The position numbers and the translations under genes were made by a program. Positions 47,320 through 64,000 of a stretch of DNA of 64,000 nucleotides are shown piece after piece. Below the pieces are notes generated by a model, which had not been told where the DNA came from, made no database searches, and was given only the letters and a program-made list of their open reading frames with translations. Every line of letters starts with the position of its first letter. Position 1 is the stretch's first letter. Source of the DNA: Pyropia yezoensis (Eukaryota; Rhodophyta; Bangiophyceae; Bangiales; Bangiaceae); the NCBI GenBank assembly GCA_009829735.1, contig CM020620.1, forward strand, positions 14,629,420 to 14,693,419, written 5' to 3'.

Positions 47320-47355
47320 TCGACACATAACAATCTCGACAAGGATCCGAAGAGC

Positions 47356-47726
47356 GTTATGTACATAACGCTCTACGGTCCGCCTGACAAGCCACGACTC
47401 CCAGATTCTACAATGGCTCGCCTGTCGCGTTATGTACATAACGCGACACGATCAGCTCTGGCCAACTATCTCGACAAACATCAGAAGAGCGTTATGTACA
47501 TAACGCGCCACGGTCTGTCTACCGTACCACACCTACCAGATTCTCAAAAAGGCTCACCTCACGCGTTATGTACATAACGCCACACGGTCAGCCTCGGCAA
47601 TCTGTCGGGACGATGCCAAGTGCTCGCAAGACGCGTTATGTACATAACGCGACTCGGTCTGCCTTGGCCAAGGCCCCGCCAATATCCGACCATGGAACGT
47701 ACCCATCTGTTGCGTTATGCACACAA
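47356..47726. repeat. Array of six GTTATGTACATAAC palindromes
   Basis: Perfect cores at 47356-47369, 47429-47442, 47491-47504, 47565-47578 and 47635-47648, and a degenerate one at 47713-47726; spacing 62-78 bases. The flanking bases also pair: the first copy extends to a 24-bp palindrome with AGAGC/GCTCT arms, the second to 26 bp with TGTCGC/GCGACA arms, so arms differ between copies while symmetry is kept. Each core is followed by a loosely conserved CGGTCNGCCT. Such arrays are typical of subterminal binding sites for a dimeric DNA-binding protein. Confidence 0.9.
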
Positions 47727-47936
47727 CATGGCATGACTCAAGACTGATGGGGGCACCATGGGCCACACACGCAAATCAAGACGTCAACTATACCAGTTGT
47801 CATCTACACTGGGGAAAAACCGGCCACCACATGAAAAGCGACACCTTCAAAGCATAAAAGAGAGGTGGGGCCGTACAGTCCCACCCCCTCCCCCACCCGC
47901 CCCGACCCTCCCCCCCCCCCCCTCACATACTCTCGT

Positions 47937-49076
47937 CTAGTACATCTTGTCGGGAGCCACAATGTTGATGTGCTCGCGGCCCGGTAGACCTGGCTGCCTC
48001 CACCTACGGCGGACGTTGTCCCACCAGCTCTTCCAGACACCTCCTGAGCTTGAAAGGTAGTCCATATCACCAATCACGTGGAGATGGCTCTGTGCCCGCG
48101 ACATCATGACGTTCACGCGCCGCTCGTCGGACAAAAAGTCGGTGTTCCCGCCGGGTGGCGCCCCAGGCTCTGACCGCACGAGGGAGAGTATGACGCAATC
48201 CACAGAAGCGCCTTGGCAGCCATCCACGGTGGACACCCTGACGTCGGCACATGGTCTGCGGGGCAGCCGCCTGCTGTCTCTCACCGACTGCACCACTTCC
48301 TTCAGCTTGTTCCGCTGCGCAGTGTACGGGGTGATGAGCATCACCTTGAGCTCGGTAGCCCCGCTGGACGTCGCCCACGCCAGCAGTAGATCCGTAAGAG
48401 CCATCTCGACCAACCGAAGCTCTGCAACGTTGATCAGGCTCTTGTTGTTGGAGGTGGTGGAACCTGACTTGTGCGCCCGATCGTTGGCCGGCAGGCGGGA
48501 AGTGTCTGTCACTTGCAGCCCGCCAAAGCGAATACGCCGACTCGGATGGTTGAGCCACGCGGGTGTTCCAAACCCCTCCTCATGGCGGGCCTTGGGCCCG
48601 CGCCCGTCCGACCATATGCCAATGTGCCGGTAAAAGATTTGTCGGAGGAGGGACCATAACAGCGGCCGCATGCGGTACTGCACGGAGAGGATGACGCAAG
48701 CGGACAGAAACCGGGCGAGCCGCTCAAAAACGCTGGACGTCATTGGCCGTGTCTCGCCTCTGTACTCCATGCCGGCGCTCGGCCTCAGCTGGGCATTGTC
48801 GCCAACAAGGACAATGCACTTGGTCCGCTGTGCCGGATGACCGTCCTCTTCTTCGTCTGACGAGCCACCCGCACGCCCCGCCCGCTTCTTGGCGCGAACA
48901 ATGGCGGCGACAGACGCAGGGACGCTTGTTGCCGCACCCTCGTCAATGATAATGGCGTCAAAGCCTTGACCGCCCACGAGCGCCACCGTGGACGTTGATG
49001 TGGTAGTGACAATGACGGACGCGCCGCCCACGATGCGCTTGCGGAGCTCCCGTTCCGCACGCTGCTGGCGACGCAA
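47937..49076 (-). CDS. SF1 helicase of the Upf1/Sen1 group, C-terminal part
   Basis: The ORF carries the later helicase motifs in order: motif II IIIDEGAAT (about 43-50), III VLVGDNAQLRP (89-99), IV SVQYRMRP (131-138), V VSTVDGCQGASVDCVILSLVRS and VI FLSDERRVNVMMSRAQSHLHVIGD, ending at the stop near 47937. It continues the helicase whose motif I lies in the neighbouring ORF 49083-54647, a few bases upstream and in register, so the two ORFs are parts of one helicase. The DEGA in place of DEAA/DEAC and the divergent motif III suggest an element-borne rather than a housekeeping Sen1. Family members unwind RNA:DNA hybrids or RNA with ATP. Confidence 0.8.
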   Translation of the reverse strand: MRRQQRAERELRKRIVGGASVIVTTTSTSTVALVGGQGFDAIIIDEGAATSVPASVAAIVRAKKRAGRAGGSSDEEEDGHPAQRTKCIVLVGDNAQLRPSAGMEYRGETRPMTSSVFERLARFLSACVILSVQYRMRPLLWSLLRQIFYRHIGIWSDGRGPKARHEEGFGTPAWLNHPSRRIRFGGLQVTDTSRLPANDRAHKSGSTTSNNKSLINVAELRLVEMALTDLLLAWATSSGATELKVMLITPYTAQRNKLKEVVQSVRDSRRLPRRPCADVRVSTVDGCQGASVDCVILSLVRSEPGAPPGGNTDFLSDERRVNVMMSRAQSHLHVIGDMDYLSSSGGVWKSWWDNVRRRWRQPGLPGREHINIVAPDKMY

Positions 49077-49082
49077 GGCAGC

Positions 49083-52000
49083 CTACAGGGCTTGCTCAGC
49101 ATCGGCACATTCCTCGAGGAGGTTTTGTGACCCACCTGCGCCCGGCTCTGCACCCTGGGCGCGGGAGCGATCATCCACACGACCGCCCACATCGGCCACC
49201 CGTGCCCTTGCCCGTTCCACCGCGGCTGTCACGGACGGGTAGGCGAAGGGGAGGCGCTCATCCACCACGGCGTCAATGTGCGTTGTCCTGGCACGGTGAC
49301 CATCCGGAGGGGGTTCACCCACACGGAGGAGCGTCACGGCGTCGGTTTCCGCGACGCCGTGTCGAGTCGCAGCCCCCGGCGAACAGAAAAACTCGTGCAC
49401 TGCGTCCAACAGCTCGTCACACGCCGTGTTTGTGCGCGACGTCAGCAGCACCCGCCCATCGGGCAGCGTCTCAAGGACCATGTCCACCATGGACACAATG
49501 GCGCGTGTCTTGCCCGTCCCAGGGGGGCCCGCCACCAGCTGCACGTCACACTCGTCCGACAACAGCCCCCGGCGCATGCAATCGACTGCGCGCCACTGGA
49601 ACTCGTCCAGATGGGCGTAGCGTGGAGGAGCACTCTGCAGGGGGGGGGGGGGCGGTGCCGGTACAGGAACCAGCTGCTGTCCCCCGCGCGGAGGCGTTGC
49701 TTCAATGGCGAGCGCCCTCTGCATGACTGGAGGAAGAAGGCCCCAGTGGCCGAGGCCGCCAAACTCGCGGCTGTCCGACAGGACACTATGAGACAGGGTG
49801 ACGACCACATTCGCCGTCCGGCGATGGAGCATCCGCTGCACGTCTGAACGACGCACGGCAAACCACCACCGCCGGGGGGGACCGGATGCGCCACCGTGGC
49901 GCGCCGTGCCGGCGTCATTGTCCTGCTCGTCCAGCCCCGGGCCAGGCGTCTTGTCCACCCACCATTGGCCTGCCCCCGCGGGCGGTGGGCCACCAACCCC
50001 CCCGCCGGGCTGCCCCTCCTTGTCCCCGCAGCGGCCAATAAACACCGCGTCCATGGGGGTGCTGCACACCGAGCCGACGGGTTCCGGTACCCAAAAGGCA
50101 CACAAATCACCCGGGGTGGCGTCTGTGGGGTCCACTTGACACTCTCCCCCGCGGTCCTTGTGGCGGCGGTGGTGGCGCCCAGCGGATCCCCCGGTAGGGC
50201 GGCCGCCCCCACCGGGGGGACGACCCCGGGGGGCGGGCATACGCACGAGCACGTTGCACATGCGACACGCCCGCGGGTCGTCCAGTATGGAGCCCCCCAC
50301 CTGCGGCGACGACAGGGTGATGGGCGCGTCGATGCGAGCCACGCCAAAGCGGGAGCACAATGACGACGTGGTCACGCGCCCACCGCGGCCGCCGCCGCCG
50401 CCATGGCCCTTGTTGCTGCTGCCTTCGATAGACTGCGCCACCGCCTCTGTACCGCGGGCGGCGAGCTGGCACAAGGTGGCCACAACGATGGCCTGCCAGT
50501 GGCCCCCAGGTCCTCTTGCGTACAACGGGGACGGGCGCAGGTGGGTTGGGACACCCTTCCACCCCGACTCGGACGTACAGAGCGTCAACTGACCGAGCGC
50601 CACCCGATCACCATCCGCGCCACACAGTGTGGGAGGACTGGCCTGGCTGGCACCACCCCCCGCCGCCGCCGCTGCCGCCGCGGGCAGAGGTGCAGCAGTG
50701 GGAGACGCGTCCCCCCCACCAGCCGGGGAACCGATACAAGGGCCTCCTACGCGGGCAGTCCCACCTCCAACAACTGCCGCCCCCGCGTCTGCAACTGCAG
50801 GCAAAGCGGGAGAGGGCTCCTCCCCCCGAGCCACTGCCGTGCCCACCGCAGCCACCCCCGCCGTGTCGGTTGCTGCATCAGTACCAGGTTCAGCAGGTGC
50901 ACCTCCGCCAAGACCCGCGTCGGCCACGGCCGCCGTGCCCGGAGGAGCCCCACCAACACCAGGAGCACCCACAGCCACGGCATCCACCGCGCCTGTGGCT
51001 ATACCCGCCGCCGATGGAGCATCGGGAGCAGCAGCGGTAACAGCAACCTCGGGCGTAGAGGGCCCGCCTGGGACGGCTGCCGTCGCGGAGGAGGTGGCAG
51101 CTACCGTCGCGACAGAGGTGGCAGCACTCTGAGCCACTGCCACACGGGGGGCCGCCCCAGTGGCGGAGGACGTACGCCGCTGCCCGACCAGTTGGCCGGC
51201 CCGGACCACCCGGGCCACACTGACGACAGTCACATCATCGTTCTCTGCGTCATTCCAGGCATCGTCGTCGTCAATGAACACAATGACGTTGCAGGGTTCC
51301 GCATTGTAGACAGGGGAAACTGCCTGCCCAGCCAACACATTGTCTGGGACCGCCACTGCGGGTAGGTAGCACACAAACTCGACTTCGCTCCCCGCGTCGT
51401 CGCCAATGGAAAAGGCGTCTGGGTCACCGTCACCGGACGGAATCGCCATGGTCGCATCGGGCGCTGGGGGAGGCCGCCCATCTTTGTCGGCACCTGACCC
51501 GGCACCTACCTCATCGGCAGGCGCAGCCCCCGCCCCTGCGTCGTCTGGCGCAGCTGCCCCCGCCCCTGCGTCTTCTGGCGCAGCACCCGCCCCAGTGTCG
51601 TCTGGCGCAGCAGACCCGCCGAGTAATTCGTCGATGCGCTGACGTAGTCGTACGACCAGTGGGCTGGCCCGCTTGCCAGGCCTGGCCGGCGGACAGAGCG
51701 CACCCTTCAGCGCGTGGAGGGCCTCCGAATAGGTCGTACCACCGATTTCTCCGACCCAGGGCCGCAGGCCCAACGGTGACGCCAACCAATCCAACGTTGA
51801 CTGGGCCAACACCCGCCGAGATGCCCACACGCCAACCGCAAGAGGCGTCCGCACCAGGTTATGGACGGCCGCGAAGTACAACCAGTTGTATAGTGACAGT
51901 GACCTGTCCGCCTTCACGTGCACGACAACAAGCTCCCAAAGCCACGGGAGCGCCTCCATCCACTCGTTGACAACGGGGGCCAGGTTTGCCACGTCCATGA

Positions 52001-54647
52001 TATCAAAGTGCGTGCAGAACTGCTTGTGCTCGGAGAGTAGGATGAGGCACGAGGACAAGGCCTTTTGGACGACACCCCGTGTGCCTCGCACGTCTCGGTG
52101 GATGTTCAGCCGCATGAGCAGGTGCAAGACACGGGCGAGCGCTCCGCTCGCCCACAGCTTAACCGACTCGCCGGGTGAGTCCGCAGGCGGGCGCCCCGCG
52201 CCCACGTCCGCCAACACTTGCCGGCTGCTCCGCACAAACGCCGTACATACGGCAAACTGCTGCAGGGGCACACCTTTCCAGGCACGATCATCACGATCTT
52301 CCCCGCGAGCGCGCACAGAGACGTCTAGCAAGTGCAGGGCGTTTTCGACGACGCGCAGGGCGTCAAAAGGCCTTGGGGGGGGGCCACTCGACGACACACC
52401 CGGGGCGGGAGCGCTGGTGGTCTCGCGGGCGGACACAGCGCGCCCCCCCTCATCGGACGGGACGGGTGCACACCCATCCAACAGGTCCGTGATGGACCAC
52501 GAGTCAGCCCCACCGCCTCCCCGCTCACCCACACCGGACAGGCAGCGGATGACCTGCCGGGCGGTCCGTCGGAAGTGTGAACTGGGGGCTACCAGCCACC
52601 CGACGCCAGTGTCCGAGGCAGTGACGCTCGCAACACGTGAAAACAGGGCCGCAGCCGGCGCGACAGCAGTAGCAGCACCCGGAGAGCCAAGGACGGACGA
52701 AAACAGCAACGCCGTCATGTCGCATAGGGCGGTTTTCCATGCGTCGACCTCTTTAAAGGCGACGAAGAAGTCTGTCGGCAACATCGCCAATGACCCGGGC
52801 ATAGACATCAGCAGGGCCACGTCGTCGGGGCTGCCTGCGCCTTCCGGGACAAGCATGTTGTCGCCATGACCCCGCCCCAGGGCGGAAGGGTTGCGGCCAG
52901 ACTCGACCAAATGCGACCACAGGCGGGTGTGTAGATTCAACGGCTTCGGCTGCAGCACCTCAGCACCTCCCTTGCCCGCCTGCACCGCCCGGTGGACGAT
53001 GGCAGTGTCTGCGCTACACGCGCTCAGTAGGAACCTCTGGGCCTCGGGGGGCCAGACACCCATGGACCAAGCGGTGCGAAAAAACGTCACTTGGTGCGGC
53101 CAGGAGGGAGAATCGGCCAGCGACCCGTGATCGTGCAACAGCTTTGAGCAGGCGGCGCCGACGGCAGCGACCATCTCGCGGCTGAAGTGGGCGAGCTCCG
53201 GACCACCCCCACTGCCAGCGTCTGCTGCACGCGCACCTTGCGCGGGAAGCGTCGCCGGCGGCGCGTCCGCCTCAGGTCGACGACCGGCCGCGCGGGGGGG
53301 GGTTAGGGCCAGAAAACGGGGAGACGGCGCCGCAGCCGGACCCGCGGGGCCACCAGGACCACCGGGCGCGGTGAGACGCGCAGCCGGACCCGCGGGGCCA
53401 CCAGGACCACCGGGCGCGGTGAGACGCAGCCGCTTTTGCCCCGACCGGCCGGTGATCATCATCCGGGTGGGCGCTGCCGCCGCCGCCGCCGCCGCCCGCA
53501 GAGACAGGTCGTCGATTGCCTTTCTTGCCCGCCACACGTTCGGAACCATGATGGGGATGACAAACATGTCGACGAGTGCCTCGAGGCTGGCGCGCGGCAG
53601 GTTGGCCAAGCCCGGGCCGCGAAGGGCGTGCCTCACAGTGGTTGCCATCTCACGTACCACGACAGGGTCACTCGCGTGCGGCTGGTACAGACGGGACAGG
53701 TGGGCAACAGCGGCTTTGGCAACCCGTACACCCGGGTCGCAACGAAGAAGGGCCGACGTGGTCTGGATGACACACAAGGCGTCGGCCTGGGACGCCGCCT
53801 GCGGGCCCATGCGAGCAAAGAGGGTGTCACAAGCATGCACCAGTCCGAGGGCACTCGTCGTGTCACCCCGCGTGGCCATGGCACCCCCCGCCGGGTCGGT
53901 ACCAACGGCCGCCGCTCCCGTCACCGCGGACCTCACCACCGGGTGAGTTACGTCCAGCACCGTCTCCGCCGGCTCGTCTGCCACTACAGGCGCATACCCG
54001 CCCGGTCGCACCGGCACAATCTCGTCGACGTCACAGTCCATCTCCTTCAGCCGCTCCGACGGATCGGTCGCCCGCACTGGTGACCCCATCAGCTGGGCCA
54101 CGCCCGACATTTGCACCTCCGCCTCGACCACCGGGTCAGTCTGTGACGCCTCATGCACCACACCAACCGACTTGGCGACCGGCATCGCAGCCGGCGCCAC
54201 ACCGGCCGGCTCGGCCACCACGTCTGCCGCGGCCGACGCCGCCTCCAACGACTCTGCCGGTGGCGCCGCTGCAGCCGAGACCGTCGGCTCCGCCGGCGCC
54301 ACACCGGCCGGCTCGGCCACCACGTCTGCCGCGGCCAACGCCGCCTCCAACGACTCTGCCGGTGGCGCCGCAGCAGCCGAGACCGTCGGCTCCGCCGGCG
54401 CCACACCCGCCGGCTCGGCCACCACGTCTGCCGCGGCCGACGCCGCCTCCAACGACTCTGCCGGTGGCGCCGCAGCAGCCGGGACCGTCGGCTCCGCCAC
54501 CGCCGACGCCGCAGCCGGGTCAGCCACCGGTGGCGTGACCGCCATCCCCACCAGCGGACCCACCGGCCTCGTTGCCGCCCCAACACCCGCAGGCTGGGCC
54601 GCCAGACACAGCAACACCACCCAGCCCGCCGCCTTGGCCGCTACCAC
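49083..54647 (-). CDS. SF1 helicase of the Upf1/Sen1 group, N-terminal part
   Basis: The open frame extends to 55220, but the stretch beyond 54647 is read from the tandem repeat. At 54648 stands CTTCCGCAG, a good 3' splice site, so 54647 is taken as an exon edge; the true start is unknown. The order is: Ala/Pro-rich leader with three 34-aa repeats, a long alpha-helical region (VAHLSRLYQPH, LEALVDMFVIPIMVPNVW, FDIMDVANLAPVVNEWMEALPWLWELVVVHV) recalling the helical N-terminus of Sen1, a low-complexity middle, a barrel-like region with the W-rich WWFAVRRSDV, then Q-motif DEFQWRAVD, motif I VAGPPGTGKTRA (1898-1905 counted from 55220) and motif Ia LLTSRTNTACDELL. Motifs II-VI are in the next ORF. 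A divergent host senataxin cannot be excluded. Confidence 0.75.
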   Translation of the reverse strand: MVAAKAAGWVVLLCLAAQPAGVGAATRPVGPLVGMAVTPPVADPAAASAVAEPTVPAAAAPPAESLEAASAAADVVAEPAGVAPAEPTVSAAAAPPAESLEAALAAADVVAEPAGVAPAEPTVSAAAAPPAESLEAASAAADVVAEPAGVAPAAMPVAKSVGVVHEASQTDPVVEAEVQMSGVAQLMGSPVRATDPSERLKEMDCDVDEIVPVRPGGYAPVVADEPAETVLDVTHPVVRSAVTGAAAVGTDPAGGAMATRGDTTSALGLVHACDTLFARMGPQAASQADALCVIQTTSALLRCDPGVRVAKAAVAHLSRLYQPHASDPVVVREMATTVRHALRGPGLANLPRASLEALVDMFVIPIMVPNVWRARKAIDDLSLRAAAAAAAAPTRMMITGRSGQKRLRLTAPGGPGGPAGPAARLTAPGGPGGPAGPAAAPSPRFLALTPPRAAGRRPEADAPPATLPAQGARAADAGSGGGPELAHFSREMVAAVGAACSKLLHDHGSLADSPSWPHQVTFFRTAWSMGVWPPEAQRFLLSACSADTAIVHRAVQAGKGGAEVLQPKPLNLHTRLWSHLVESGRNPSALGRGHGDNMLVPEGAGSPDDVALLMSMPGSLAMLPTDFFVAFKEVDAWKTALCDMTALLFSSVLGSPGAATAVAPAAALFSRVASVTASDTGVGWLVAPSSHFRRTARQVIRCLSGVGERGGGGADSWSITDLLDGCAPVPSDEGGRAVSARETTSAPAPGVSSSGPPPRPFDALRVVENALHLLDVSVRARGEDRDDRAWKGVPLQQFAVCTAFVRSSRQVLADVGAGRPPADSPGESVKLWASGALARVLHLLMRLNIHRDVRGTRGVVQKALSSCLILLSEHKQFCTHFDIMDVANLAPVVNEWMEALPWLWELVVVHVKADRSLSLYNWLYFAAVHNLVRTPLAVGVWASRRVLAQSTLDWLASPLGLRPWVGEIGGTTYSEALHALKGALCPPARPGKRASPLVVRLRQRIDELLGGSAAPDDTGAGAAPEDAGAGAAAPDDAGAGAAPADEVGAGSGADKDGRPPPAPDATMAIPSGDGDPDAFSIGDDAGSEVEFVCYLPAVAVPDNVLAGQAVSPVYNAEPCNVIVFIDDDDAWNDAENDDVTVVSVARVVRAGQLVGQRRTSSATGAAPRVAVAQSAATSVATVAATSSATAAVPGGPSTPEVAVTAAAPDAPSAAGIATGAVDAVAVGAPGVGGAPPGTAAVADAGLGGGAPAEPGTDAATDTAGVAAVGTAVARGEEPSPALPAVADAGAAVVGGGTARVGGPCIGSPAGGGDASPTAAPLPAAAAAAAGGGASQASPPTLCGADGDRVALGQLTLCTSESGWKGVPTHLRPSPLYARGPGGHWQAIVVATLCQLAARGTEAVAQSIEGSSNKGHGGGGGRGGRVTTSSLCSRFGVARIDAPITLSSPQVGGSILDDPRACRMCNVLVRMPAPRGRPPGGGGRPTGGSAGRHHRRHKDRGGECQVDPTDATPGDLCAFWVPEPVGSVCSTPMDAVFIGRCGDKEGQPGGGVGGPPPAGAGQWWVDKTPGPGLDEQDNDAGTARHGGASGPPRRWWFAVRRSDVQRMLHRRTANVVVTLSHSVLSDSREFGGLGHWGLLPPVMQRALAIEATPPRGGQQLVPVPAPPPPPLQSAPPRYAHLDEFQWRAVDCMRRGLLSDECDVQLVAGPPGTGKTRAIVSMVDMVLETLPDGRVLLTSRTNTACDELLDAVHEFFCSPGAATRHGVAETDAVTLLRVGEPPPDGHRARTTHIDAVVDERLPFAYPSVTAAVERARARVADVGGRVDDRSRAQGAEPGAGGSQNLLEECADAEQAL
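53341..53431. repeat. Duplicated Gly-Pro-Ala segment in the helicase gene
   Basis: Two near-identical copies of about 45 bp (CGCAGCCGGACCCGCGGGGC and on) code LTAPGGPGGPAGPAA twice in the helicase N-terminal half. Confidence 0.8.
54199..54504. repeat. Three 102-bp repeats coding 34-aa units
   Basis: Units begin at 54199, 54301 and 54403 and differ at only a few bases. The helicase frame reads SLEAASAAADVVAEPAGVAP then AEPTVSAAAAPPAE in each. The multiple of three keeps the frame. Confidence 0.9.
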
Positions 54648-54659
54648 CTGCGGAAGGAG

Positions 54660-56920
54660 GGGGAGGGGGAGGGGTGGGGGGGAAGAGGGGAAAAGGGCAC
54701 GGCAGAGAATCAGCGGCCGTGGGGTGGGGGAGCGGCTTGGGGGCGGCCCACCAGCAGCGGCGGCGGCGCGGCTTGAAGAAACCGCGCCGCCGGTGCTGGC
54801 ACGACCTGCCCCGCCCTTCTCCCAACAGAGCCGCCGCGCCCGTGCTCCCCCCCGGCCGGCCGCCGATCCTCCACCCCGCCCATCCCACACGCTCCCCCCT
54901 CTCCTCCACACGCCCCCTCCTCTCCCCCCCCCCCCCACAACAAACGCACCGGTCCAGCCGCCGCCACCGCCACCCAGTCCGCCGCCTTGGCCGCTGCCAC
55001 CTGCGGGGGGAGGGGGGGAAGAGGGGAAAAGGGCACGGCAGAGAATCAGCGGCCGTGGGGTGGGGGCGCGGCTTGGGAGCAGCACACCAGCAGCGGCGGC
55101 GGCGCGGTTTAAACCGCGCCGCCGGTGCTGGCGCGACCTGCCCCCCTCTTCCAACAGAGCCGCCGTGCCCGTGCTCCCCCCCAGGCCGGCCGCCGATCCT
55201 CCACCCCACCCCTCCCGCACTCTCCCCCCTCCTCACCCCCCCCCCCCCCACAACAAACGCACCACACAGACCGCCGCAACCGCCAGACAACCCGCCGCCT
55301 TGGCGGCCACTTGCGGGGGTGGGGGGAGGGGGTGGGGGAAGAGGGGAAAAGGGCACGGCAGAGTATCAGCGGCCGTGGGGTGGGGGCGCGGCTTGGGAGC
55401 AGCACACCAGCAGCGGCGGCGGCGCGGTTTAAACCGCGCCGCCGGTGCTGGCGCGACCTGCCCCCCTCCCCCAACAGATCCGCCGCGCCCGTGCTCCCCC
55501 CCGGCCGGCCGCCGATCCTCCACCCCGCCCCCCCCACACCCCCCCCCCCCCTCACCCCCCCCCCCCAACAACAAACGCACCGGTCCGGCCGCCGCAACCG
55601 CCACACAACCGGGGTGGGGGGGAAGAGGCAAAAAGGGCACGGCAGGGAATCAGCGGCCGTGGGGTGAGGGCGCGGCTTGGGAGCTGCACGCCAGCAGCGG
55701 CGGCGTCGCGGTTTGAAAACCCGCGCTGCCGGTGCTAGCGCGACCTGCCCCCCTCCCCAAACAGAGCCGCCGCGCCCGTGCTCCCCCCCGGCCGGCCGCC
55801 GATCCTCCACCCCGCCCCTCCCACACTCTCCCGCCTCCTCACGCCCCCCCCCCCAACAACAAACGCACCACACAGACCGCCGCAACCGCCACACAACCCG
55901 CCGCCTTGGCCGCTGCCAACTGCGGGGGGGGTGGGGGGGAAGGGGCAAAAAGGGCACGGCAGGGAATCAGCGGCCGTGGGGTGAGGGCGCGGCTTGGGAG
56001 CTGCACGCCAGCAGCGGCGGCGGCGCGGTTTGAAAACCCGCGCTGCCGGTGCTAGCGCGACCTGCCCCCCTCCCCAAACAGAGCCGCCGCGCCCGTGCTC
56101 CCCCCCGGCCGGCCGCCGATCCGCCACCTCACGCCTCCCACACTTTCCCCCCCTCCTCCTCACGCCCCCTCCTCACGCCCCCCCCCCCACAACAAACGCA
56201 CCGGTCCGGCCGCCGCAACCGCCACCCAGCCCGCCGCCTTGGCCGCTGCCACCTGCGGGGGGAGGGGGGGAAGAGGGGAAAAGGGCACGGCAGAGAATCA
56301 GCGGCCGTGGGGTGGGGGCGCGGCTTGGGAGCAGCACACCAGCAGCGGCGGCGGCGCGGTTTAAACCGCGCCGCCGGTGGTGGCGCGACCTGCCCCCCTC
56401 TTCCAACAGAGCCGCCGTGCCCGTGCTCCCCCCCAGGCCGGCTGCCGATCCTCCACCCCACCCCTCCCACACACTCCCCCCCTCCTCCTCACGCCCCCTC
56501 CTCCCCCCCCCCCCCCCACAACAAACGCACCGGTCCGGCCGCCGCCACCGCCACACAACCCACCGCCTTGGCCGCTGCCACCTGCGGGGGGAGGGGGGGA
56601 AGAGGGGAAAAGGGCACGGCAGAGAATCAGCGGCCGTGGGGTGGGGGCGCGGCTTGGGAGCAGCACACCAGCAGCGGCGGCGGCGCGGTTTAAACCGCGC
56701 CGCCGGTGCTGGCGCGGCCTGCCCCCCTCCCCCAACAGATCCGCCGCGCCCGTGCTCCCCCCCGGCCGGCCGCCGATCCGCCACCCCACCCCTCCCACAC
56801 TCTCCCCCCTCCTCACGCCCCCCCCCCCCACGACAAACGCACCACACAGACCGCCGCAACCGCCAGACAACCCGCCGCCTTGGCGGCCGCCAGCAGCGGG
56901 GGGGGTGGGGGGAGGGGTTG
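54660..56920. repeat. Seven-copy tandem repeat of about 284-336 bp
   Basis: The marker GCACGGCAG recurs at 54697, 55033, 55353, 55637, 55954, 56285 and 56614. Each unit holds a C-run, a CGGCCGCCGATCC block, AACAAACGCACC, an Ala/Val-coding block of about 55 bases and a GGGGAAAAGGG block. In several units a pyrimidine tract plus CCGCAG (minus strand) precedes the Ala/Val block, and a GTGCGTTTG donor-like site follows it, so a unit looks like a small exon with intron on both sides. Four units (55098-55123, 55418-55443, 56350-56375, 56679-56704) contain a perfect 26-bp palindrome with centre TTTAAA and GGCGGCGCGG arms. No independent gene is believed here. Confidence 0.9.
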
Positions 56921-57085
56921 GGGAAGGGAGGGGGCGCGGCACACCGTGGAGAGGGTGGTTGGGAATGGGGGAGAGGGCGCGGCACAACCGGGAAAGGGAG
57001 GGTGGGGGAAGGGAGGGGGCGCGGCACACCGTCGAGAGGGTGAGGTGGAGAGGGCGCGGCACAACCGGGAAAGGGAGGGCGGTGG
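56921..57085. repeat. GGGCGCGGCACA-type tandem repeat
   Basis: Two double units in which GGGCGCGGCACACCGT..GAGAGGGTG alternates with GGGCGCGGCACAACCGGGAA; each double unit is about 75 bases. It follows directly on the larger repeat. Confidence 0.75.
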
Positions 57086-57089
57086 GGGG

Positions 57090-57240
57090 ACGGGGCCGCG
57101 CGTGTACGCATGCGCGCGTGCACGCCCGAGGATGCACGCGCACGGTCCGCGCGCACGCATGTGCGAGTGCGTGGGCGGGCGCCGCGCGCATGCATGCGCG
57201 CGTGCATTCGCGCGCGCACGTCCGTGAGACGTGCGCCCCG
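57090..57240. other. Alternating purine-pyrimidine tract (Z-DNA-prone)
   Basis: About 150 bases made mainly of GCGCGT, GCACGC, GCATGC and CGTGCG steps, that is, alternating purine and pyrimidine with few breaks. Such tracts favour left-handed DNA. There is no coding sequence. Confidence 0.6.
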
Positions 57241-57354
57241 GGAAACGACGATGTTTGGTCCGACGATTTTTGTCCTGCGTATTACACACCGGCAGTTTGC
57301 GGAACAGCCAGAAGACTTTTCAGCACAACCCTTAGCGATCGACCCCCCCAAGAA

Positions 57355-57780: not shown

Positions 57781-58124
57781 AGCACAACAACTGAGGGGGA
57801 GGCAGGGGACGAACAGGCAAGGGTCGTGGCCGCCGCCGTCGCGGGCGTGGCGTCTAGTCGCCGAGGCGGGGCTCTTGGTGGGGACGGTGGACGGCCGCTT
57901 CCCATGTTTTCATCGGCCTGGTGGGTGGCTGCCTGCTGAGCTCCCGGCTTGTTGGTGCGGAGGGTCTTGGTGTGCATGACGCCGCACAGTGGAGTACTTC
58001 CACTAAAGGCACTTTTTTTTCCTGCACAAGGCCCCCTCCCCCCGCCACCCCCCCCCTCCTTCCGCCCCCCCCCCCCCCCCCCCCCCCTCCCCCTCGTCCT
58101 TCCCCCAACCTCTGCTGCTCAGTC

Positions 58125-59222
58125 ATGCCTCGGCACCCTGCGCGCCGTGTCTCGGCCGCCAAGGCCCGAGTGGCCGTCGCGCGTGATGTGCACCCAGACG
58201 TACTCCGCACTGTCTTTGACGTTGCCGATGAAGCTGTGGCGTCTTTTCGGCGCCTGGCACTCGAGGTCCATAGCGAGGCAGACGGCGGCAGTGGGGCAGG
58301 ACAGGCAAGGACCAGAAGCAAAGTCGAACTGAAGAACCCGGGACGGCTCGACCTGTCGACGGCCGTCAAGGACGCCGTGCTAAATTTCCTGCGGCGCGCG
58401 TCTACGACGCGCGGGAAACGTGCGTCATCCGAGTGGGCCGGCGGGGGCGGCGCGGCAGGTGAGCGTGCCATCTACTCCGCGGCGGCCGCACCGGGCGGGG
58501 GCATGGGTGCGGCGGCGGCGCAGCCGCCCCCGCGCTATGATGCCGCCATTGACGACGACGAGGAGGAGGGGGCAGGTGGGGCGGGCCCCGCACCCGACGA
58601 GTCACCCCTTACCAGCAACAAAGACGTGCTGACGCGCATCGGTTTTTTCGAACCGGACACTGGGGCTGGGGGGGCCGCCGAACAGGAAGGCCAGGCGGGC
58701 AGAGTGACCAAGAGGCAGCTCCTCCGTCGCAGACTTACGGGCGCGCGCCGTGGGGTGATGAAGGACCTCAACCGCCGGGTGGCAGAGCAAGCCGCACTCG
58801 TACAGCACCTGCTGCAGACGACCAACAATCTGGCCGCGCTGCTGCGTACTGACGTGCCCAACGCGGTGTTCACTGGCGGACCATCCACGGAGGTAGGTCC
58901 CGTGCGCGTGTCCCGGGAGTCCGACCCCAACACTCCTCACGTCACTGAGGCGCTGAGCATCTTGGCCGGGATGTCGGAGAGGCTCCTCGAATCCTCGAGG
59001 AATCTACAAACGATGTCCGACGACTTGGCACACCAGAGGCGCCGGAACGAGGAGCTCCGCGACGCACTCGCGCGTGCAGGCGCTGTACGGCAGCGGGGCG
59101 ACGACAACGACTCCCTTGAGGGGTCGGATGACTCCGGTGGGGGCGGATGCGGGGGCGGATTGGGTGGGGGTGGGGGTTTGAACCAGCCGGCACCGGCAGG
59201 GCCGGAGCCTGGCCGCCGTTGA
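58125..59222 (+). CDS. Hypothetical coiled-coil protein of the large element
   Basis: ATG 58125 (MPRHPARRVSAAKARV) chosen because the frame upstream is a C-run; 365 aa. Residues 1-100 are basic and helical (AVARDVHPDVLRTVFDVADEAVASFRRLALEV, LSTAVKDAVLNFLRRAS). Then comes an Ala/Gly/Asp linker, a helix KDVLTRIGFFEPD, a coiled-coil-like region (MKDLNRRVAEQAALVQHLLQTTNNLAALL and ALSILAGMSERLLESSRNLQTMSDDLAHQRRRNEELRDAL), and a Gly-rich tail. It is the only long plus-strand gene of the element. A structural or DNA-binding partner role is conceivable, but no family was recognised. Confidence 0.6.
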   Translation: MPRHPARRVSAAKARVAVARDVHPDVLRTVFDVADEAVASFRRLALEVHSEADGGSGAGQARTRSKVELKNPGRLDLSTAVKDAVLNFLRRASTTRGKRASSEWAGGGGAAGERAIYSAAAAPGGGMGAAAAQPPPRYDAAIDDDEEEGAGGAGPAPDESPLTSNKDVLTRIGFFEPDTGAGGAAEQEGQAGRVTKRQLLRRRLTGARRGVMKDLNRRVAEQAALVQHLLQTTNNLAALLRTDVPNAVFTGGPSTEVGPVRVSRESDPNTPHVTEALSILAGMSERLLESSRNLQTMSDDLAHQRRRNEELRDALARAGAVRQRGDDNDSLEGSDDSGGGGCGGGLGGGGGLNQPAPAGPEPGRR

Positions 59223-59437
59223 CAGGGAGCCACAGCCACCGGCTGGCTGGCGTCGGCTTTGTATTGTCTCTCTGTTGTTTTCTTCTTCATCCTGGCTTTT
59301 CTTCGTAGCTCTTCTCCGTGCGTATGCGTGGCTGATGTTCACACGTTTCCCTCCCCGACCCGCGTGTCTGCAAGACCGCCCGCCCCCCCCCCCCCGCCAA
59401 AGTGCCAACGAAAAAAGGGCACACCCCACCCCACTCT
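59223..59437. other. Convergent spacer
   Basis: About 215 bases between the ends of the coiled-coil gene (+) and the SET ORF (-). T-rich TTGTTTTCTTCTTC near 59273 and a C-run near 59382 are present. No gene. Confidence 0.4.
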
Positions 59438-60415
59438 TCACCCGCTCATGGGGGCAAACGTGTGGGGTTTCGAGTGGCTCAGGAGGACGCCCGCCCCACT
59501 TGCCCGGCCGCGTCGCTCCCAGTCGGCCGAAGAAAAGACATAGTCCGGCCCGTAATCCGCGACGAGCTCCTCACCAACGGCAATGTCCCTCAGCGCGATG
59601 ACCACCATCATGTCGTGCCTGACAAAGTGTGCAGGCGTCAGCCGTACCGGCTGCGCGTCGTCGACATTGGCGACGATGACCACGTTTGGTCGCTCCAGCC
59701 AGACGTCTTCCCGGTCGCCACGTCTGCCGCCGGCGCCGCCTCGTCTCCCATCACTGTCCGCGGGCCCGGCGCCCGTCTGGGCCAATGTCGCTTCGGCATC
59801 AACCGGGGACGTTGCCCGTCCGTCATTGACATGGCCCGTCACACACAGTGGTGACGGTACGATAAACAGAGATGTAGGCACGCCCCTGCACCCAGCCAAT
59901 GTTCCGGTACCTAGGTCAGCAGCAGGGCCGCCGCCGCCGTGGCTGTGGCCTTTTTGGTTGTGTCGCTTTCGCATTGTGCGACCACCCCCCCCCCCTTCTT
60001 CGCCATCGTCGTACCGACGGCGGCGGTGGTGGCGAGGGCGGCGAACGTCAGCGTGCTCCTGGTTACCCGGCCCACCCCCCCCGACGTCCGCCTCTACCGC
60101 GTCATTCGGGCCATCTACGTCCAGTTCGTCAAACACCACTTCCATCGCGCGCTCCGAAAACTCCCGCGCCGTGGGGCCGTGGGCACCCAGCACAGAAGCG
60201 GCATACCGCGGCGTCTTGACCCGCTGCTTTGTCAGGTCAGCGTACACAATGGCCCCCCAAAAAGGTCCAATCGCGTCCTGTCGTTTGAACGGGCGCAACG
60301 CAAAGACGCCACGACCGGCCGTCCCACCCGCCAAGCGGCTTTGGGCAACGTACAGCCCCAGGTGTGCGGCCGACACGTGCAGCGCGACCTCCGCGTCCTC
60401 CACGGCAAGGCGCAC
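59438..60415 (-). CDS. SET-domain protein (putative lysine methyltransferase)
   Basis: The frame gives a split SET domain. AGRGVFALRPFKRQDAIGPFWGAIVYAD is the SET-N GxGxxA..I..G....Y.G block. After a charged, Gly/His-rich insertion of about 150 residues come NVVIVANVDDAQPVRL and MMVVIALRDIAVGEELVADYGPDYV, the SET-C NH-like block and the GEEL..DYG/Y motif that forms the AdoMet site and holds the catalytic tyrosine. No cysteine-rich pre-SET or post-SET is seen. The first in-frame codons lie within the end of the DNA-methyltransferase ORF (overlap 60232-60415) in another frame, and protein-like sequence (AAPVPVRLAVEDAEVALHV) runs upstream of 60415. The SET part may therefore be made as a fusion with the methyltransferase through splicing or frameshifting, or by a separate start. 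The target, histone or element protein, is unknown. Confidence 0.75.
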   Translation of the reverse strand: MRLAVEDAEVALHVSAAHLGLYVAQSRLAGGTAGRGVFALRPFKRQDAIGPFWGAIVYADLTKQRVKTPRYAASVLGAHGPTAREFSERAMEVVFDELDVDGPNDAVEADVGGGGPGNQEHADVRRPRHHRRRRYDDGEEGGGGGRTMRKRHNQKGHSHGGGGPAADLGTGTLAGCRGVPTSLFIVPSPLCVTGHVNDGRATSPVDAEATLAQTGAGPADSDGRRGGAGGRRGDREDVWLERPNVVIVANVDDAQPVRLTPAHFVRHDMMVVIALRDIAVGEELVADYGPDYVFSSADWERRGRASGAGVLLSHSKPHTFAPMSG

Positions 60416-62781
60416 TGGTACAGGCGCGGCCAGCTCCCGGCGCCAACGCCTTCCAGGCGGGCCACCTCAACACCCACATCTGCACCAGGTCGCGGCAGCC
60501 CGGGCGTCTGTGCCACGCGGCCCACCCGTTCAGCGTCTGCTTGCATGGCCCACCGCCCGGCAAAGTATCGCACCAGCTCCAACGACAAGGCAGAATGGCA
60601 GGGCAGCCCGGGGGGGGGCTCCCAGACAGCAGCATCATCTCGCATGACAGACGAGGGTGGGTTGATCATCAGCTCAATCTCCTCCCCGACAGCCGCACCA
60701 CTACCGCCTCGGCCCTCGCTGTCGGTCTCCTCCCCCGCCCCTGCTGCTGTTGTAGCTGTAGCAGCAGCGACCGACGCGGCTTCGATTGTCCGTGCGGCCG
60801 CAATGACATCGGATGTGACCACCCCCGTGCTTTCGTAGCCCCCCACCAGCACCTGGTTGACAAACTCCCGACGCAGACGAGCCCGACTCGCGTCCATGAC
60901 AACAGCATCCGAGTCGCAGCTGATGACCAAACGGTGCTGGCCCAGGACGGCCCGTATACACGCTGCCGCCGTCACACACGTCCCCGCAAACGTGTCCAGT
61001 ACGATGTCCCCTGGCTGGGAAAACCGCAATAGGAGCTCGAGGATGAGGGCAAGACACTTTTGCTCTGGTCGTATCCATTGCCGCGACCCGTCCCGCCATC
61101 GAAGCACCACCTCCTTAAAGTGTGGCGGTCTCACATTGTCAATGACATTGTCGTGGGCCAGGAACCGCGACGGCACAGCGTTCCAAGTACGGTAGTTGAC
61201 CATGGCGTAGCACTCTTCCCGGGACACCCCAGCGCGCGTGGCGTGGACAATAAACTCGACCTTGTTGGACAGGTTGGTCGTGCTCTGCCGCAGCGAGTTC
61301 ACCGCGTGTGCGTCCTTGATCGCCACCAGCGGGTGGCCGTCCACTCGAAACGCCGACAGGCTCTTCCTCCCCACCGGGTCCATATCCTTGAGCGCCTTGA
61401 GCGTGTCCATCCACGGACCCAGCTGACCCGCAGAGCAAAAAATCAGCACATGGCCGCCAGGGCGGACAACGGTCTGGAACAACCGGGCGGCACGCTGCAT
61501 GTCGGCAGAGGTAAACACGTCATGTGCAGACTGCTCCAGGCTCCTGTCCGCCCGAATGTTGTACGGAGGATCACAGAGCACCAGCTGTACCGAAGAACTA
61601 ATAAAGGGCGGGAGGGTGTGCTCGCCTGTCGGTGTAGAGGTTGTCGTCGCCCGCCCCCCGCCGCTGCCGTCCCCGTGGATGCCACGCGCACCGCCACCAC
61701 CCTCGCGACGAGACGCGTTGGACCGCGTCGCCACTTTTGTGGCGTGTGCCGAGAGCAAGTCATCAAACCCACAAGCGTAGGTCGCACAAACCTGGCCCAT
61801 GGCATCATCCAGCACGCCCCAGGCTTCCCCCAGGTCAGCCTGCGGAGCATCACCGGGGCCGTCGGGCCGCTGAGGCTGCTGACACGGCCGGTCCTGCCGG
61901 CCATCCCCACACAGCAACGCCGCCCCTCGGCCAATTGACAGCCCGGATTGACACCCTCCCACCACCTGCTGCTCTGCCATCAAGCCAGCCACTCTGCAGT
62001 CAGCACGAAACGCCAACTCAATCGTTCTGGCGGAAGATGCACAACGGTCGGGCGCAGGTGACAGCCCCCGACGAGCGACGGTAGACGCCGTCGCCCACGC
62101 AGGCACCGTACCCCCGCGGCCAGCGCGGGGGGGGCTTGAAAACGCAGTCAGCCCCGCCAAGACGCTGCGCAGTACTCTAGGCACATTGCTAGACAGACGG
62201 TCCCACTCTGGGTGCCTGTAGTCCTCCACGGTCAAGAAGCCCACGACCTTGCGCTGCTTACGACGCCGCTGTCCAGTGTGGGCTGCGTCGTCACCGTCGC
62301 CCGCAGGGGTCGCGGCGCTCGCGTCACCCGGACCTCCACGGCCCAGCAGGCCGCGCGTCACCGTAATGCCCAGGCGGTCTGCGCCGGTGCACACGTGTAC
62401 GTGCTCAAGCATGGTGCCAGCGGCCGCACGGAGCTGAGCATCTGCAAGCGGCGTCAGCCTCCCCACCGCCCTCTGGTCATCATCTTGTCCATCCGACTGC
62501 TGGCCTGACACTGCCCTCTGCCGTTGTACCGGGACAGTGCCACCACGGACCGGCCCTTTGCTGGTGTGCAGGTCCACTGCCTGTCCGTCGGGCGATGTGA
62601 GGTTGTCCTCTGCGTCCAATGGCCGCCCCAGCGCCACGAAGAAGCCCACAGACGGGCACCAGAGCATGTGCGTAGACAGCATCACCTCGGCGGAGCGAAA
62701 ACCCCGACTGCGCGCCACGACATCCCAACCAGAAACGACGTCGCGAACAATAGTCCGAATTCGGGCTGCCACGCCGTCCAA
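60232..62781 (-). CDS. Beta-class DNA amino-methyltransferase (N6-adenine or N4-cytosine)
   Basis: 849-aa frame. Catalytic motif IV VLCDPPYNI lies at residues 402-410, followed by LFQTVVRPGGHVLIFCSAGQLGPW. The AdoMet-binding motif comes later, in EQKCLALILELLLRFSQPGDIVLDTFAG (about 573-600). Motif IV before motif I is the beta-class order of the N6/N4 methylase family (PF01555), best known from bacterial restriction-modification and phages and rare in eukaryotes. The N-terminal 400 residues are unrelated and may recognise DNA or partners. The last 60 or so residues are read from the start of the SET domain in a wrong frame, so the natural end is near 60430. The first in-frame ATG is unclear: the frame opens directly after the 62812-63948 ORF and in register with it. 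Likely role: methylation of the element DNA or of host adenines. Confidence 0.8.
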   Translation of the reverse strand: MDGVAARIRTIVRDVVSGWDVVARSRGFRSAEVMLSTHMLWCPSVGFFVALGRPLDAEDNLTSPDGQAVDLHTSKGPVRGGTVPVQRQRAVSGQQSDGQDDDQRAVGRLTPLADAQLRAAAGTMLEHVHVCTGADRLGITVTRGLLGRGGPGDASAATPAGDGDDAAHTGQRRRKQRKVVGFLTVEDYRHPEWDRLSSNVPRVLRSVLAGLTAFSSPPRAGRGGTVPAWATASTVARRGLSPAPDRCASSARTIELAFRADCRVAGLMAEQQVVGGCQSGLSIGRGAALLCGDGRQDRPCQQPQRPDGPGDAPQADLGEAWGVLDDAMGQVCATYACGFDDLLSAHATKVATRSNASRREGGGGARGIHGDGSGGGRATTTSTPTGEHTLPPFISSSVQLVLCDPPYNIRADRSLEQSAHDVFTSADMQRAARLFQTVVRPGGHVLIFCSAGQLGPWMDTLKALKDMDPVGRKSLSAFRVDGHPLVAIKDAHAVNSLRQSTTNLSNKVEFIVHATRAGVSREECYAMVNYRTWNAVPSRFLAHDNVIDNVRPPHFKEVVLRWRDGSRQWIRPEQKCLALILELLLRFSQPGDIVLDTFAGTCVTAAACIRAVLGQHRLVISCDSDAVVMDASRARLRREFVNQVLVGGYESTGVVTSDVIAAARTIEAASVAAATATTAAGAGEETDSEGRGGSGAAVGEEIELMINPPSSVMRDDAAVWEPPPGLPCHSALSLELVRYFAGRWAMQADAERVGRVAQTPGLPRPGADVGVEVARLEGVGAGSWPRLYQCALPWRTRRSRCTCRPHTWGCTLPKAAWRVGRPVVASLRCARSNDRTRLDLFGGPLCTLT

Positions 62782-62811
62782 ACAGCCGGCTAGACGCTCC
62801 TCGTACTGCCG

Positions 62812-63735
62812 TTACTGCTCGCCCGTGTGTGGAGTCCATGTGGACCGGGATGCCCGCCGGAGATGTTGCTCAAGACAGTAGTAACACGACATGGACAAAA
62901 CGTGCTCAAATGCACGAACGGTGGACAGGTCGTCGTCGTCGTCGTCCACAGTGTCTGACGGGGTACGGCGACCACCCACACCGAGCACGTCGCGAAGCAG
63001 TAGGTGTTGCGCTAGCCCGGGACACGCGCGCCAACTTCTCCTTACAGGGCGATCTGGGGCGTCCTCCTCTTCCGTCTGACACCGTCGGCGGGACGCCCAA
63101 CGACAGAGCTCGGCAACGCCATCAACCTCGCCGCCCAGTACAAGCAGCAGTTGCCACACCCTCAGGTCAACATCCTCGTCCGCGGGGACGGGCACCAGCC
63201 TAACGTTCCGCTGCCGGTGCATGTCCTCGTCATCCGAGGGGTCTTCGGCCCCAGCACGGGGGACAGTACCGCTCGCGATTGCCACTGTGTGCCACCGCGA
63301 CCCGGATGCAAAGCGCAGTACCCGACCACGACTGAAGGAAGCACGCGGTACTGCTACAAACCGCTTCAGTACCCACACGGCTTCATAGACCCCGTGCGGG
63401 ATGCTATCGTGCAGCCAGCGAGTGCGGGAATGTAGCCTGGGTTGGCCCACTCTGTCCCACAGATAGACCGGATCCATGTCAACCATAGGCCGGCAATGGT
63501 GCTCGCACCAGTCGACAAGATCAGCCCATGTCCCAGAGCGTAGCAAGAGCCCTCCCCTGCCCTCCAGGGAATGGAGGACAAATAGATCGCGCAAAGACCC
63601 AAGGACGTAGACGACAACCCCACAAGGATACGGCAAAGGTGGTGAAGACGTCTCTGCTCGCGCTACCGCCAACGCGGCACGCTCTGCGAAGATTGTGACA
63701 AGGTTGACCACCTCTACAGAATCACTTGACGGCAT
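62812..63735 (-). CDS. Hypothetical protein upstream of the DNA methyltransferase
   Basis: Start set at MPSSDSVEVV (ATG at 63733-63735); the frame is open to 63948 with another ATG (MVDMLVMENS), which is an alternative. The composition is protein-like: VNLVTIFAERAALAVARAE, GVVVYVLGSLRDLFVLHSLEGRGGLLL, WADLVDWCEHHCRPMVDMDPVYLWDRVG, YEAVWVLKRFVAVPRASFSRGRVLRFASGSRW, with an acidic DTVDDDDDDLS near the end and a CYYC motif. It lies immediately before, and in register with, the methyltransferase frame, so it may be the N-terminal portion of the same protein. No domain was recognised; a BAH-like beta fold around VYLWDRVG...YEAVWVLKRF is a guess. A GTTATGTACATAAC palindrome sits about 250 bases upstream of the ATG. 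Confidence 0.55.
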   Translation of the reverse strand: MPSSDSVEVVNLVTIFAERAALAVARAETSSPPLPYPCGVVVYVLGSLRDLFVLHSLEGRGGLLLRSGTWADLVDWCEHHCRPMVDMDPVYLWDRVGQPRLHSRTRWLHDSIPHGVYEAVWVLKRFVAVPRASFSRGRVLRFASGSRWHTVAIASGTVPRAGAEDPSDDEDMHRQRNVRLVPVPADEDVDLRVWQLLLVLGGEVDGVAELCRWASRRRCQTEEEDAPDRPVRRSWRACPGLAQHLLLRDVLGVGGRRTPSDTVDDDDDDLSTVRAFEHVLSMSCYYCLEQHLRRASRSTWTPHTGEQ

Positions 63736-63985
63736 GGTAGTGACGCGGAGAAGGGGCCACAAACCGGGGAAGAGAACGCAGCCTAGGTCGCACCGTGCCG
63801 ACAGTAGACGTGGAGAGGAACGGCGATGACGGTGCCGAGGGGAGACCGGCAAGGAGACTGACACTGGTCGTATCTTAAGTACAAATGAATTTGCTTCCAG
63901 TACAGGGAGCGCCTCGTCCGAGTTCTCCATTACCAACATATCTACCAATCATTTAAAAGAATTACAGCATCGGAACGATGAGTTT

Positions 63986-63999
63986 GTTATGTACATAAC
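63986..63999. repeat. Right-hand GTTATGTACATAAC palindrome
   Basis: Identical to the cores of the 47356-47726 array and extended by one base pair each side (TGTTATG..CATAACA). Being at the window edge, it may be the first of a second array. Confidence 0.85.
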
Positions 64000-64000
64000 A

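What the first reader, a model, noticed from the sequence alone, without database searches (positions are those of the whole stretch)
47320..64000. Unclassified large element: palindrome arrays around helicase + DNA methylase + SET
The same 14-bp palindrome marks both sides of about 16.6 kb with a coherent, mostly minus-strand set of genes unlike the host genes to the left. I know no standard transposon family with this gene set. The mobilising enzyme may lie beyond the right edge or be one of the unknown ORFs.
Basis: inference. Interest (0 to 1): 0.85.

Follow-up and report, generated by a model that had tools for sequence, protein, structure and literature searches.

The report
Giant red-algal transposon with methylase cargo
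The window cuts through one copy of a very large jumping DNA element, about 45,000 bases long and present in dozens of copies in the genome of the nori seaweed, which carries a DNA methylase joined to a histone-methylase-like domain, a helicase and a Fanzor-like nuclease, but no enzyme that we can yet name as its mover.

Summary
The palindromes and genes are real, but the palindromes do not mark the ends. The window lies in Pyropia yezoensis (scaffold sizes match). It holds part of one copy of a dispersed repeat whose sharp left end is at window 40925 (shared by 38 of 39 other scored places) and whose right end lies 31.7 kb beyond the window (shared by 32 of 39). Without nested insertions and an assembly duplication this copy is about 45 kb. 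AACT opens the element at 14 of 15 ends read and closes it at 13 of 14, without further target duplication in most. Cargo: Fanzor-like protein, UPF1/Sen1-type helicase, DNA amino-methyltransferase in one gene with a SET domain, RING protein, unassigned ORFs. The 18-bp palindrome occurs 152 times in the genome, in four clusters inside the element, with 3-5 times fewer substitutions than its surroundings: probably protein-binding control sites. No transposase or recombinase was recognised, and the methylase gene is broken in all five copies examined. It is a new variant of a known kind (giant algal transposons with methylase cargo); its mover is the open question.

The parts
40925..40953 (.). 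Left terminus AACTATCGGTTAAACCCCTCCGGGAAACA
   Evidence: 38 of the 39 other scored genomic places begin within 4 bp of this base, none extends further left (40 of 142 candidates scored); AACT at 14 of 15 left ends read
41107..45453 (-). Fanzor (TnpB)-like protein, left-most gene, reading towards the end
   Evidence: Published Fanzor motif D-X(125,275)-[TS][TS]XX-C4-X(5,50)-RD found in 1 of 204 ORFs of the window (motif; spacing inside C4 set by me); weak Pfam TNB match, E 0.025, below cut-off; no PDB sequence match; substitutions by codon position 40/29/61 against copy A
47354..47729 (.). Palindrome cluster 1: five exact GTTATGTACATAAC and one degenerate, 62-79 bp apart
   Evidence: 5/427 substitutions inside against 91/1443 outside in four other copies, with short gaps inside in copies A and G
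47937..55232 (-). UPF1/Sen1/IGHMBP2-type SF1 helicase gene, two ORFs split by one in-frame stop in this copy; one open frame of 1779 aa in copy D
   Evidence: AAA_11/AAA_12, TIGR00376 E 1.4e-31, below its cut-off
54612..56939 (.). Seven copies of a repeat of about 320 bp over the 5' part of the helicase ORF and upstream; four of them carry an exact second palindrome GGCGGCGCGGTTTAAACCGCGCCGCC
   Evidence: in copies A and B the same repeat also lies at the 5' side of the large unassigned ORF
57858..59222 (+). Unassigned ORF
   Evidence: No Pfam hit better than E 0.24; little third-position excess
59438..60466 (-). SET domain, C-terminal part of the methylase gene; in copy A in one frame with methylase motif I
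   Evidence: PF00856 E 8.5e-7 over the last 25 positions of the profile; copy A ORF of at least 679 aa carries both
60232..62811 (-). Amino DNA methyltransferase, DPPY before FxGT (beta-class order, recalled)
   Evidence: PF01555 E 2.4e-11; RsrI and CcrM among the PDB matches; PHROG 67 E 9.7e-19
62812..63948 (-). N-terminal part of the same methylase gene, separated here by one in-frame stop that is absent from the three other alignments made (rows A/B, D, G)
   Evidence: copy B has a 1096-aa ORF with DPPYNI at residue 652 that runs through this place
63986..63999 (.). First palindrome of cluster 2, 47 bp upstream of the first ATG (63939) of the ORF above (start codon assumed); two more at 64041 and 64208
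   Evidence: 4/216 substitutions inside against 100/1860 outside

Best explanation
The finding is an internal slice of a giant DNA transposon family of the red alga Pyropia yezoensis, about 45 kb in the window copy (24.8 to 73 kb between ends in 15 paired copies, because of deletions and nested insertions). SHOWN: fixed ends, many dispersed copies, mostly 90-98% identical, co-linear content, and no target duplication beyond a shared AACT in most pairs read. INFERRED: it moves as a unit through a double-stranded intermediate and inserts site-specifically at AACT, either by a site-specific recombinase that uses AACT as exchange core or by a transposase with a strict AACT target; the enzyme is an unrecognised gene of the element or acts in trans. 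INFERRED: the palindrome is the binding site of a protein, most simply one encoded by the element, that controls its promoters and perhaps focuses the element's own DNA and histone methylation (methylase-SET protein) on itself.
For: Left end shared by 38 of 39 other scored places and right end by 32 of 39; AACT at 14 of 15 left and 13 of 14 right ends read. The ends share an inverted 20-bp motif (2 of 2000 mononucleotide shuffles as good). Third-codon-position excess in the helicase and Fanzor-like genes. Palindromes: 152 exact, 0 of the reversed control, within the element for most listed sites, conserved, absent from viral contigs. Methylase motif I and SET in one frame in copy A, methylase and N-terminal part in one frame in copy B.
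Against: No transposase, integrase or recombinase family was recognised in the element's own ORFs that were scanned, and the 28 phage-integrase-type matches of the genome are all more than 50 kb from the listed element parts. No empty site was found; the one junction searched has unique flanks. Copy 35.20 shares a longer CACCCTGTAACT at both sides, which the simple AACT rule does not explain. The methylase gene is broken in all five copies examined, and the methylase, its N-terminal part, SET and several other ORFs show little or no third-position excess, so they may be decaying or not translated as drawn. The binding role of the palindrome is untested.
Confidence: 0.6

Rival explanations
1. 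Crypton-like or Starship-like mover: a tyrosine recombinase excises the element as a circle and inserts it by exchange at the short core AACT.
For: Short terminal direct repeat of 4 bp and no other duplication in most copies, as described for Cryptons (passages of PMC3212892); inverted GAT and ATC flank the AACT core. The genome holds tyrosine-recombinase ORFs elsewhere (28 matches) that could act in trans.
Against: None of those 28 matches lies within 50 kb of a listed element part; the imperfect inverted motifs near both ends are not what is described for Cryptons.
Confidence: 0.3
2. Cut-and-paste (DDE) transposon with degenerate inverted ends and a strict 4-bp target AACT, mobilised in trans: a giant cargo carrier without a transposase of its own, as reported for some Ectocarpus families.
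For: Inverted subterminal motif; giant algal families without transposase genes are reported (PMC12477816, passages).
Against: A strict non-palindromic target is unusual for DDE enzymes (recalled); no smaller relative with both ends was noticed, though only 40 of 142 left-end and 40 of 91 right-end candidates were scored.
Confidence: 0.35
3. Endogenous large DNA virus or virus-derived element with fixed ends.
For: Size; methylase, helicase, RING and SET genes; element-specific palindromes.
Against: No polymerase, capsid, packaging ATPase or primase among the Pfam hits of the ORFs scanned; no relative of the methylase and no palindrome in the viral contigs (the first finds close relatives only).
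Confidence: 0.07
4. Segmental duplications of an ordinary host region, not a mobile element.
For: Some copies are truncated or rearranged (for example C1:43.3 Mb, where parts lie in opposite orientation).
Against: The same two ends to within a few bases in dozens of copies, with unrelated flanks in the 15 left and 14 right ends read, on three chromosomes.
Confidence: 0.03

Closest known systems
Giant algal DNA transposons with a ParB-like plus N4/N6 DNA methylase accessory protein (Sola1-1 of Ectocarpus; [quoted passage not shown] PMC12477816, passages seen)
   Same: Giant element, prokaryote-type N4/N6 methylase cargo, mostly unknown accessory genes, alga
   Different: 21.5 kb there, about 45 kb here; Sola transposase there, none recognised here; methylase joined to SET here; no ParB domain recognised by Pfam, PHROGs, NCBIfam, PDB sequences or phage tblastn
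Giant EnSpm/CACTA elements of red algae (Chondrus, 16-20 kb, passage of PMC6431247; Bostrychia, only as cited in PMC12477816, paper not held)
   Same: Large red-algal element with extra ORFs
   Different: Ends here are AACT...AACT, not CACTA; no EnSpm transposase hit in the ORFs scanned
Cryptons (PMC3212892, passages)
   Same: 4-bp terminal direct repeat, no other target duplication in most copies
   Different: No tyrosine recombinase recognised in the element; far larger; inverted subterminal motifs
Fanzor-bearing eukaryotic transposons (PMC3627910, passages)
   Same: Fanzor-like gene with the published motif
   Different: Those belong to Mariner, Helitron, Sola, IS4, MuDR or IS607 types, with an unclassified 3-kb family in a red alga; this one is giant and unclassified

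Membership tests
Mobile DNA element (transposon) | Dispersed copies with fixed ends and unrelated flanks | tested here: met
Mobile DNA element (transposon) | Encodes its own transposase or recombinase | tested here: inconclusive
   No Pfam family of that kind in the ORFs scanned; not every six-frame ORF was scanned and unknown families would be missed
Crypton | Short (4-6 bp) terminal direct repeats, no other target duplication | tested here: met
   AACT at 14 of 15 left and 13 of 14 right ends; exception copy 35.20
Crypton | Tyrosine recombinase gene in the element | tested here: not met
   PF00589: 28 matches genome-wide, none within 50 kb of a listed element part; the Crypton-specific Pfam model was not searched genome-wide
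EnSpm/CACTA | CACTA-type ends | tested here: not met
   Ends read
Helitron | 5' TC and 3' CTRR ends (recalled) | tested here: not met
   Ends read; the helicase is of UPF1/IGHMBP2 type and no Rep or Helitron domain was hit
Starship | Captain tyrosine recombinase as first gene, reading inwards (recalled) | tested here: not met
   The gene at the left end is Fanzor-like and reads outwards; no recombinase in the element
Fanzor | D-X(125,275)-[TS][TS]XX-C4-X(5,50)-RD | tested here: met
   1 of 204 ORFs; TNB match weak, E 0.025; the structure model without alignment was unusable, mean pLDDT 39
ParB-methylase accessory proteins of algal transposons | ParB domain together with N4/N6 methylase | tested here: inconclusive
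   Methylase met; ParB not recognised in the separate large ORF of L005; only a DG..R..AL motif by eye
Polinton or large DNA virus | Family B polymerase, capsid, packaging ATPase | tested here: inconclusive
   No such Pfam hit in the ORFs scanned, but not every ORF was scanned

The most novel reading that the evidence does not exclude
A new superfamily of giant eukaryotic transposons that inserts site-specifically at AACT with a mobilising enzyme of an undescribed type (possibly an unassigned right-arm gene, or with a part played by the Fanzor-like nuclease), and that marks itself through palindrome-targeted DNA and histone methylation by one fused methylase-SET protein.
Probability: 0.15. Interest if true: 0.9.

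Novelty: new variant of a known kind. Interest (0 to 1): 0.58.

Why it matters
It adds a very large DNA transposon of algae, with clean ends and enough copies to work on, whose mover is unknown. The joining of a bacterial-type DNA methylase with a SET domain on a mobile element offers a testable case of a transposon that may write both DNA and histone marks on itself, and the conserved palindromes are the obvious candidate targets. It also shows that large cargo elements in a crop seaweed are easily mistaken for host gene clusters.

Tried and rejected
Palindromes as element ends: rejected, homology runs through them to window 40925 and beyond the right edge. An element end at extended coordinate 74499: rejected, that is a break of copy A only, and most places run on. 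An end at extended 93369: rejected, a 2.2-kb nested element with inverted ends sits there and the true end follows at 95650. ParB domain for the large ORF of L005: not supported. JmjC-like reading of the ORF L005:2486-3670: by eye only; the one match is a sub-threshold zinc ribbon. Tyrosine recombinase in the element: none found. TnpB/Fanzor zinc-ribbon family over the genome: 7 weak matches, none over the cut-off and none at the window's gene. Empty site for copy 19.58: flanks unique, uninformative; flanks of 14 copies against all fetched loci: no other match. Structure predictions of window 62812-63948 and of the C-terminal part of the Fanzor-like protein, without alignment: mean pLDDT 34 and 39, not used, no fold search made. 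Fanzor by PDB sequence search: no meaningful match. Methylase relatives in viral contigs: none; in phages 5 distant methylases. Palindrome in prokaryote genomes: one stretch, taken as chance.
Full report
Where the window lies. The window is C3:14629420-14693419 of a 107,475,971-bp assembly of 11 contigs. Its three large contigs are 43.59, 34.33 and 29.39 Mb; the Pyropia yezoensis paper gives scaffolds of 29.4, 34.3 and 43.6 Mb (PMC7423979, section 6) and 65% GC (passages). I therefore take it as P. yezoensis, an inference from sizes. The left part of the window holds host-type genes: a protein kinase at 22583-26968 and a PRP39/HAT-repeat protein at 28124-30937.

The observation. The 18-bp form occurs 152 times in the genome, the reversed control never. 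Of the 50 places that the call listed, 40 are within 20 kb of another part of the element described below (random mean 1.5 of 50); five more lie 31-50 kb from one, and five belong to an array at C1:38.03 Mb with no other part near it in my hand-made list, though one search finds the left-array sequence there. The 18-mer is absent from the viral contigs and found in one stretch of the prokaryotic genomes.

The real element. A 701-bp query over the left array finds 32 other places with matches over 400 bp, at 84-96% identity, and some shorter ones. In the fetched copies homology runs through both arrays. To the left it stops sharply at window 40925: of 40 places scored (of 142 candidates) 39, the window included, carry this end, and no other copy extends beyond it by more than 4 bp. 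To the right it runs on through queries at C3:14703.0, 14706.2 and 14716.1 kb to a second sharp end...CCACCAGGATAACT, seen in copy D at C1:32635847; 32 of 39 other scored places (of 91 candidates) stop within 6 bp of it, seven stop earlier, none goes beyond. In the window copy this end is at extended coordinate 95650, C3:14725069. The window copy thus spans 54.7 kb. This includes a net insertion of about 4.9 kb that copy D lacks and that matches sequence in copies E and F, with a sub-threshold match to the copia-type reverse transcriptase (RVT_2, E 7e-4); a 2.2-kb nested element with inverted ends; and a 2.2-kb repeat behind a run of 500 N, present once in copies A and B, which looks like an assembly fault. 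What remains is about 45 kb. Ends paired by me as the nearest in the same orientation lie 24.8, 47.8, 48.2, 48.7, 48.9, 51.6, 53.2, 53.7, 54.7, 54.9, 59.1, 59.5, 63.0, 67.9 and 73.0 kb apart (the right end of the 59.5-kb pair could not be read). A possible pair 86 kb apart at C2:13.1-13.2 Mb was left out.

Ends. I read 15 left ends and looked for the 15 matching right ends; 14 right ends were found. AACT opens the element in 14 of 15 and closes it in 13 of 14. Beyond AACT the flanks show no target duplication: in 1 of 14 pairs the last two bases on the left equal the first two on the right. Copy 35.20 is a real exception, with CACCCTGTAACT on both sides. The base before the left AACT is T in 10 of 15. 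The predicted empty site is X-AACT-Y; I could not show one, since the single junction searched has unique flanks. The two ends share a 20-bp inverted motif 7 and 23 bp inside (2 of 2000 mononucleotide shuffles as good).

Gene content. From the left: a Fanzor-like protein that reads outwards (41107-45453), the only one of 204 window ORFs with the published Fanzor motif, with a weak profile match (E 0.025) and no PDB match; an SF1 helicase of the UPF1/Sen1/IGHMBP2 type, split by one stop here but one 1779-aa frame in copy D and 1433 aa in copy G; and a methylase gene whose N-terminal part, PF01555 domain and SET domain are separate ORFs here, while the N-terminal part and the methylase share a frame in copy B (1096 aa) and methylase motif I and SET share a frame in copy A (at least 679 aa). 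Motif order (DPPY before FxGT) and the matches to RsrI and CcrM point to the beta class of N6-adenine/N4-cytosine methylases (class recalled). Beyond the window: an unassigned ORF with a zinc-ribbon-like end (L005:2486-3670), a large low-complexity ORF (L005:5711-9835) with a ParB-like motif by eye only, a RING protein (L006:444-1646), two diverged ORFs in opposite orientation with a weak TFIIB-repeat match in one (E 0.015), and a right-arm ORF of 374 aa here and 492 aa stop to stop in copy D, without match.

Selection. Substitutions by codon position (the row A/B mixes copies A and B): helicase main ORF 74/71/121 (A), 110/115/155 (A/B), 119/127/168 (G), 99/108/156 (D); helicase C-terminal ORF 8/11/25, 13/11/27, 9/12/27, 6/8/28; Fanzor-like 40/29/61 (A). 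These support past protein selection, although the last three rows of the main ORF also hold 21-22 indels not divisible by three. The methylase excess is slight (23/20/27, 18/28/35, 18/15/30), that of SET present in one of three rows (9/14/8, 8/14/12, 8/8/14); the N-terminal methylase part (9/4/5, 18/8/13, 14/7/10) and the ParB-like ORF (32/22/26) show none.

No mover found. The Pfam scans of the main and many lesser ORFs name no transposase, integrase, resolvase or HUH nuclease. A genome-wide scan with the phage-integrase family gives 28 matches, 15 of them in ORFs of 1343-1424 aa, none within 50 kb of a listed element part. Not every six-frame ORF was scanned, and unknown families would be missed.

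What the palindromes do. They lie in four clusters inside the window copy: 6.4-6.8 kb from the left end, at the methylase gene, and two in the right arm, the last 1.1-1.4 kb from the right end in copy D. Cluster 2 begins 47 bp before the first ATG of the methylase ORF. Against four other copies, substitutions inside the 18-mers are 5/427 and 4/216, outside 91/1443 and 100/1860. The sites were chosen by their match in the window copy and the copies are related, so this contrast is somewhat inflated. A protein-binding control site is the simplest reading; partition-like sites for a ParB-like protein, or methylation targets, are further options that I cannot separate. A second palindrome, around GGTTTAAACC, is exact in four of seven repeats of about 320 bp at the 5' part of the helicase ORF; the same repeat lies at the 5' side of the large L005 ORF in copies A and B, which suggests a second control module.

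Comparison with what is known. Giant algal transposons with an N4/N6 methylase next to a ParB-like domain are in print (Ectocarpus Sola1-1; similar proteins in green and red algae; PMC12477816, passages), as are enlarged EnSpm elements in Chondrus (PMC6431247, passage) and Fanzor genes on many transposons, including a 3-kb family in the red alga Cyanidioschyzon (PMC3627910, passages). Cryptons have short terminal direct repeats of 4-6 bp (PMC3212892, passages). The element works like a large cargo transposon; it fails a tested defining feature of EnSpm, Helitron and Starship (ends or first gene) and of Cryptons (recombinase), and shows no hallmark gene of Polintons in the ORFs scanned. I found no paper that describes it in ten searches of open-licence papers only; the Bostrychia paper, the likeliest place for a relative, was not held. 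Novelty: a new variant of a known kind, with an unknown mover and a methylase-SET gene as its odd features.

Noticed in passing
L005:6048-8789: A run of 500 N is followed by a 98%-identical repeat of the 2.2 kb before it, probably an assembly duplication; further 500-N gaps lie at C1:5973600-5974099 and C1:32657225-32657724, in other copies.
   Followed up: partly
L019:5700-8000 and the start of L020 (extended 87842-92560): Copia-like retrotransposon remains (RVT_2, E 7e-4) inserted in the element's right arm, matched in other copies and flanked by a 175-bp repeat; probably carried along when the element moved.
   Followed up: partly
Extended 93371-95607 (L020) and C3:4406404-4408647 (L044): A 2.2-kb nested element with imperfect inverted ends (ATGGTACGTTGCA ... 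TGCAACGCACCAT), at different places in two copies of the giant element.
   Followed up: partly
C1:39063250-39078480 and C1:28368919-28402006: Tandem ORFs of about 1370-1390 aa with phage-integrase-type recombinase domains, period about 4.7 or 5.0 kb, perhaps DIRS- or Crypton-like elements.
   Followed up: no
L006:7538-8368 and L006:9319-10000: Two related ORFs in opposite orientation (about 69% DNA identity) with a weak TFIIB-repeat match in one; they may be cyclin-fold proteins encoded by the element.
   Followed up: partly
window 14330-15256: Long minisatellite of CGGTGGCGACGG-type units in the host part of the window.
   Followed up: no
C1:43316224-43440113: A copy whose left and right parts lie in opposite orientation about 100 kb apart, a sign of inversion or ectopic recombination between copies.
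   Followed up: no
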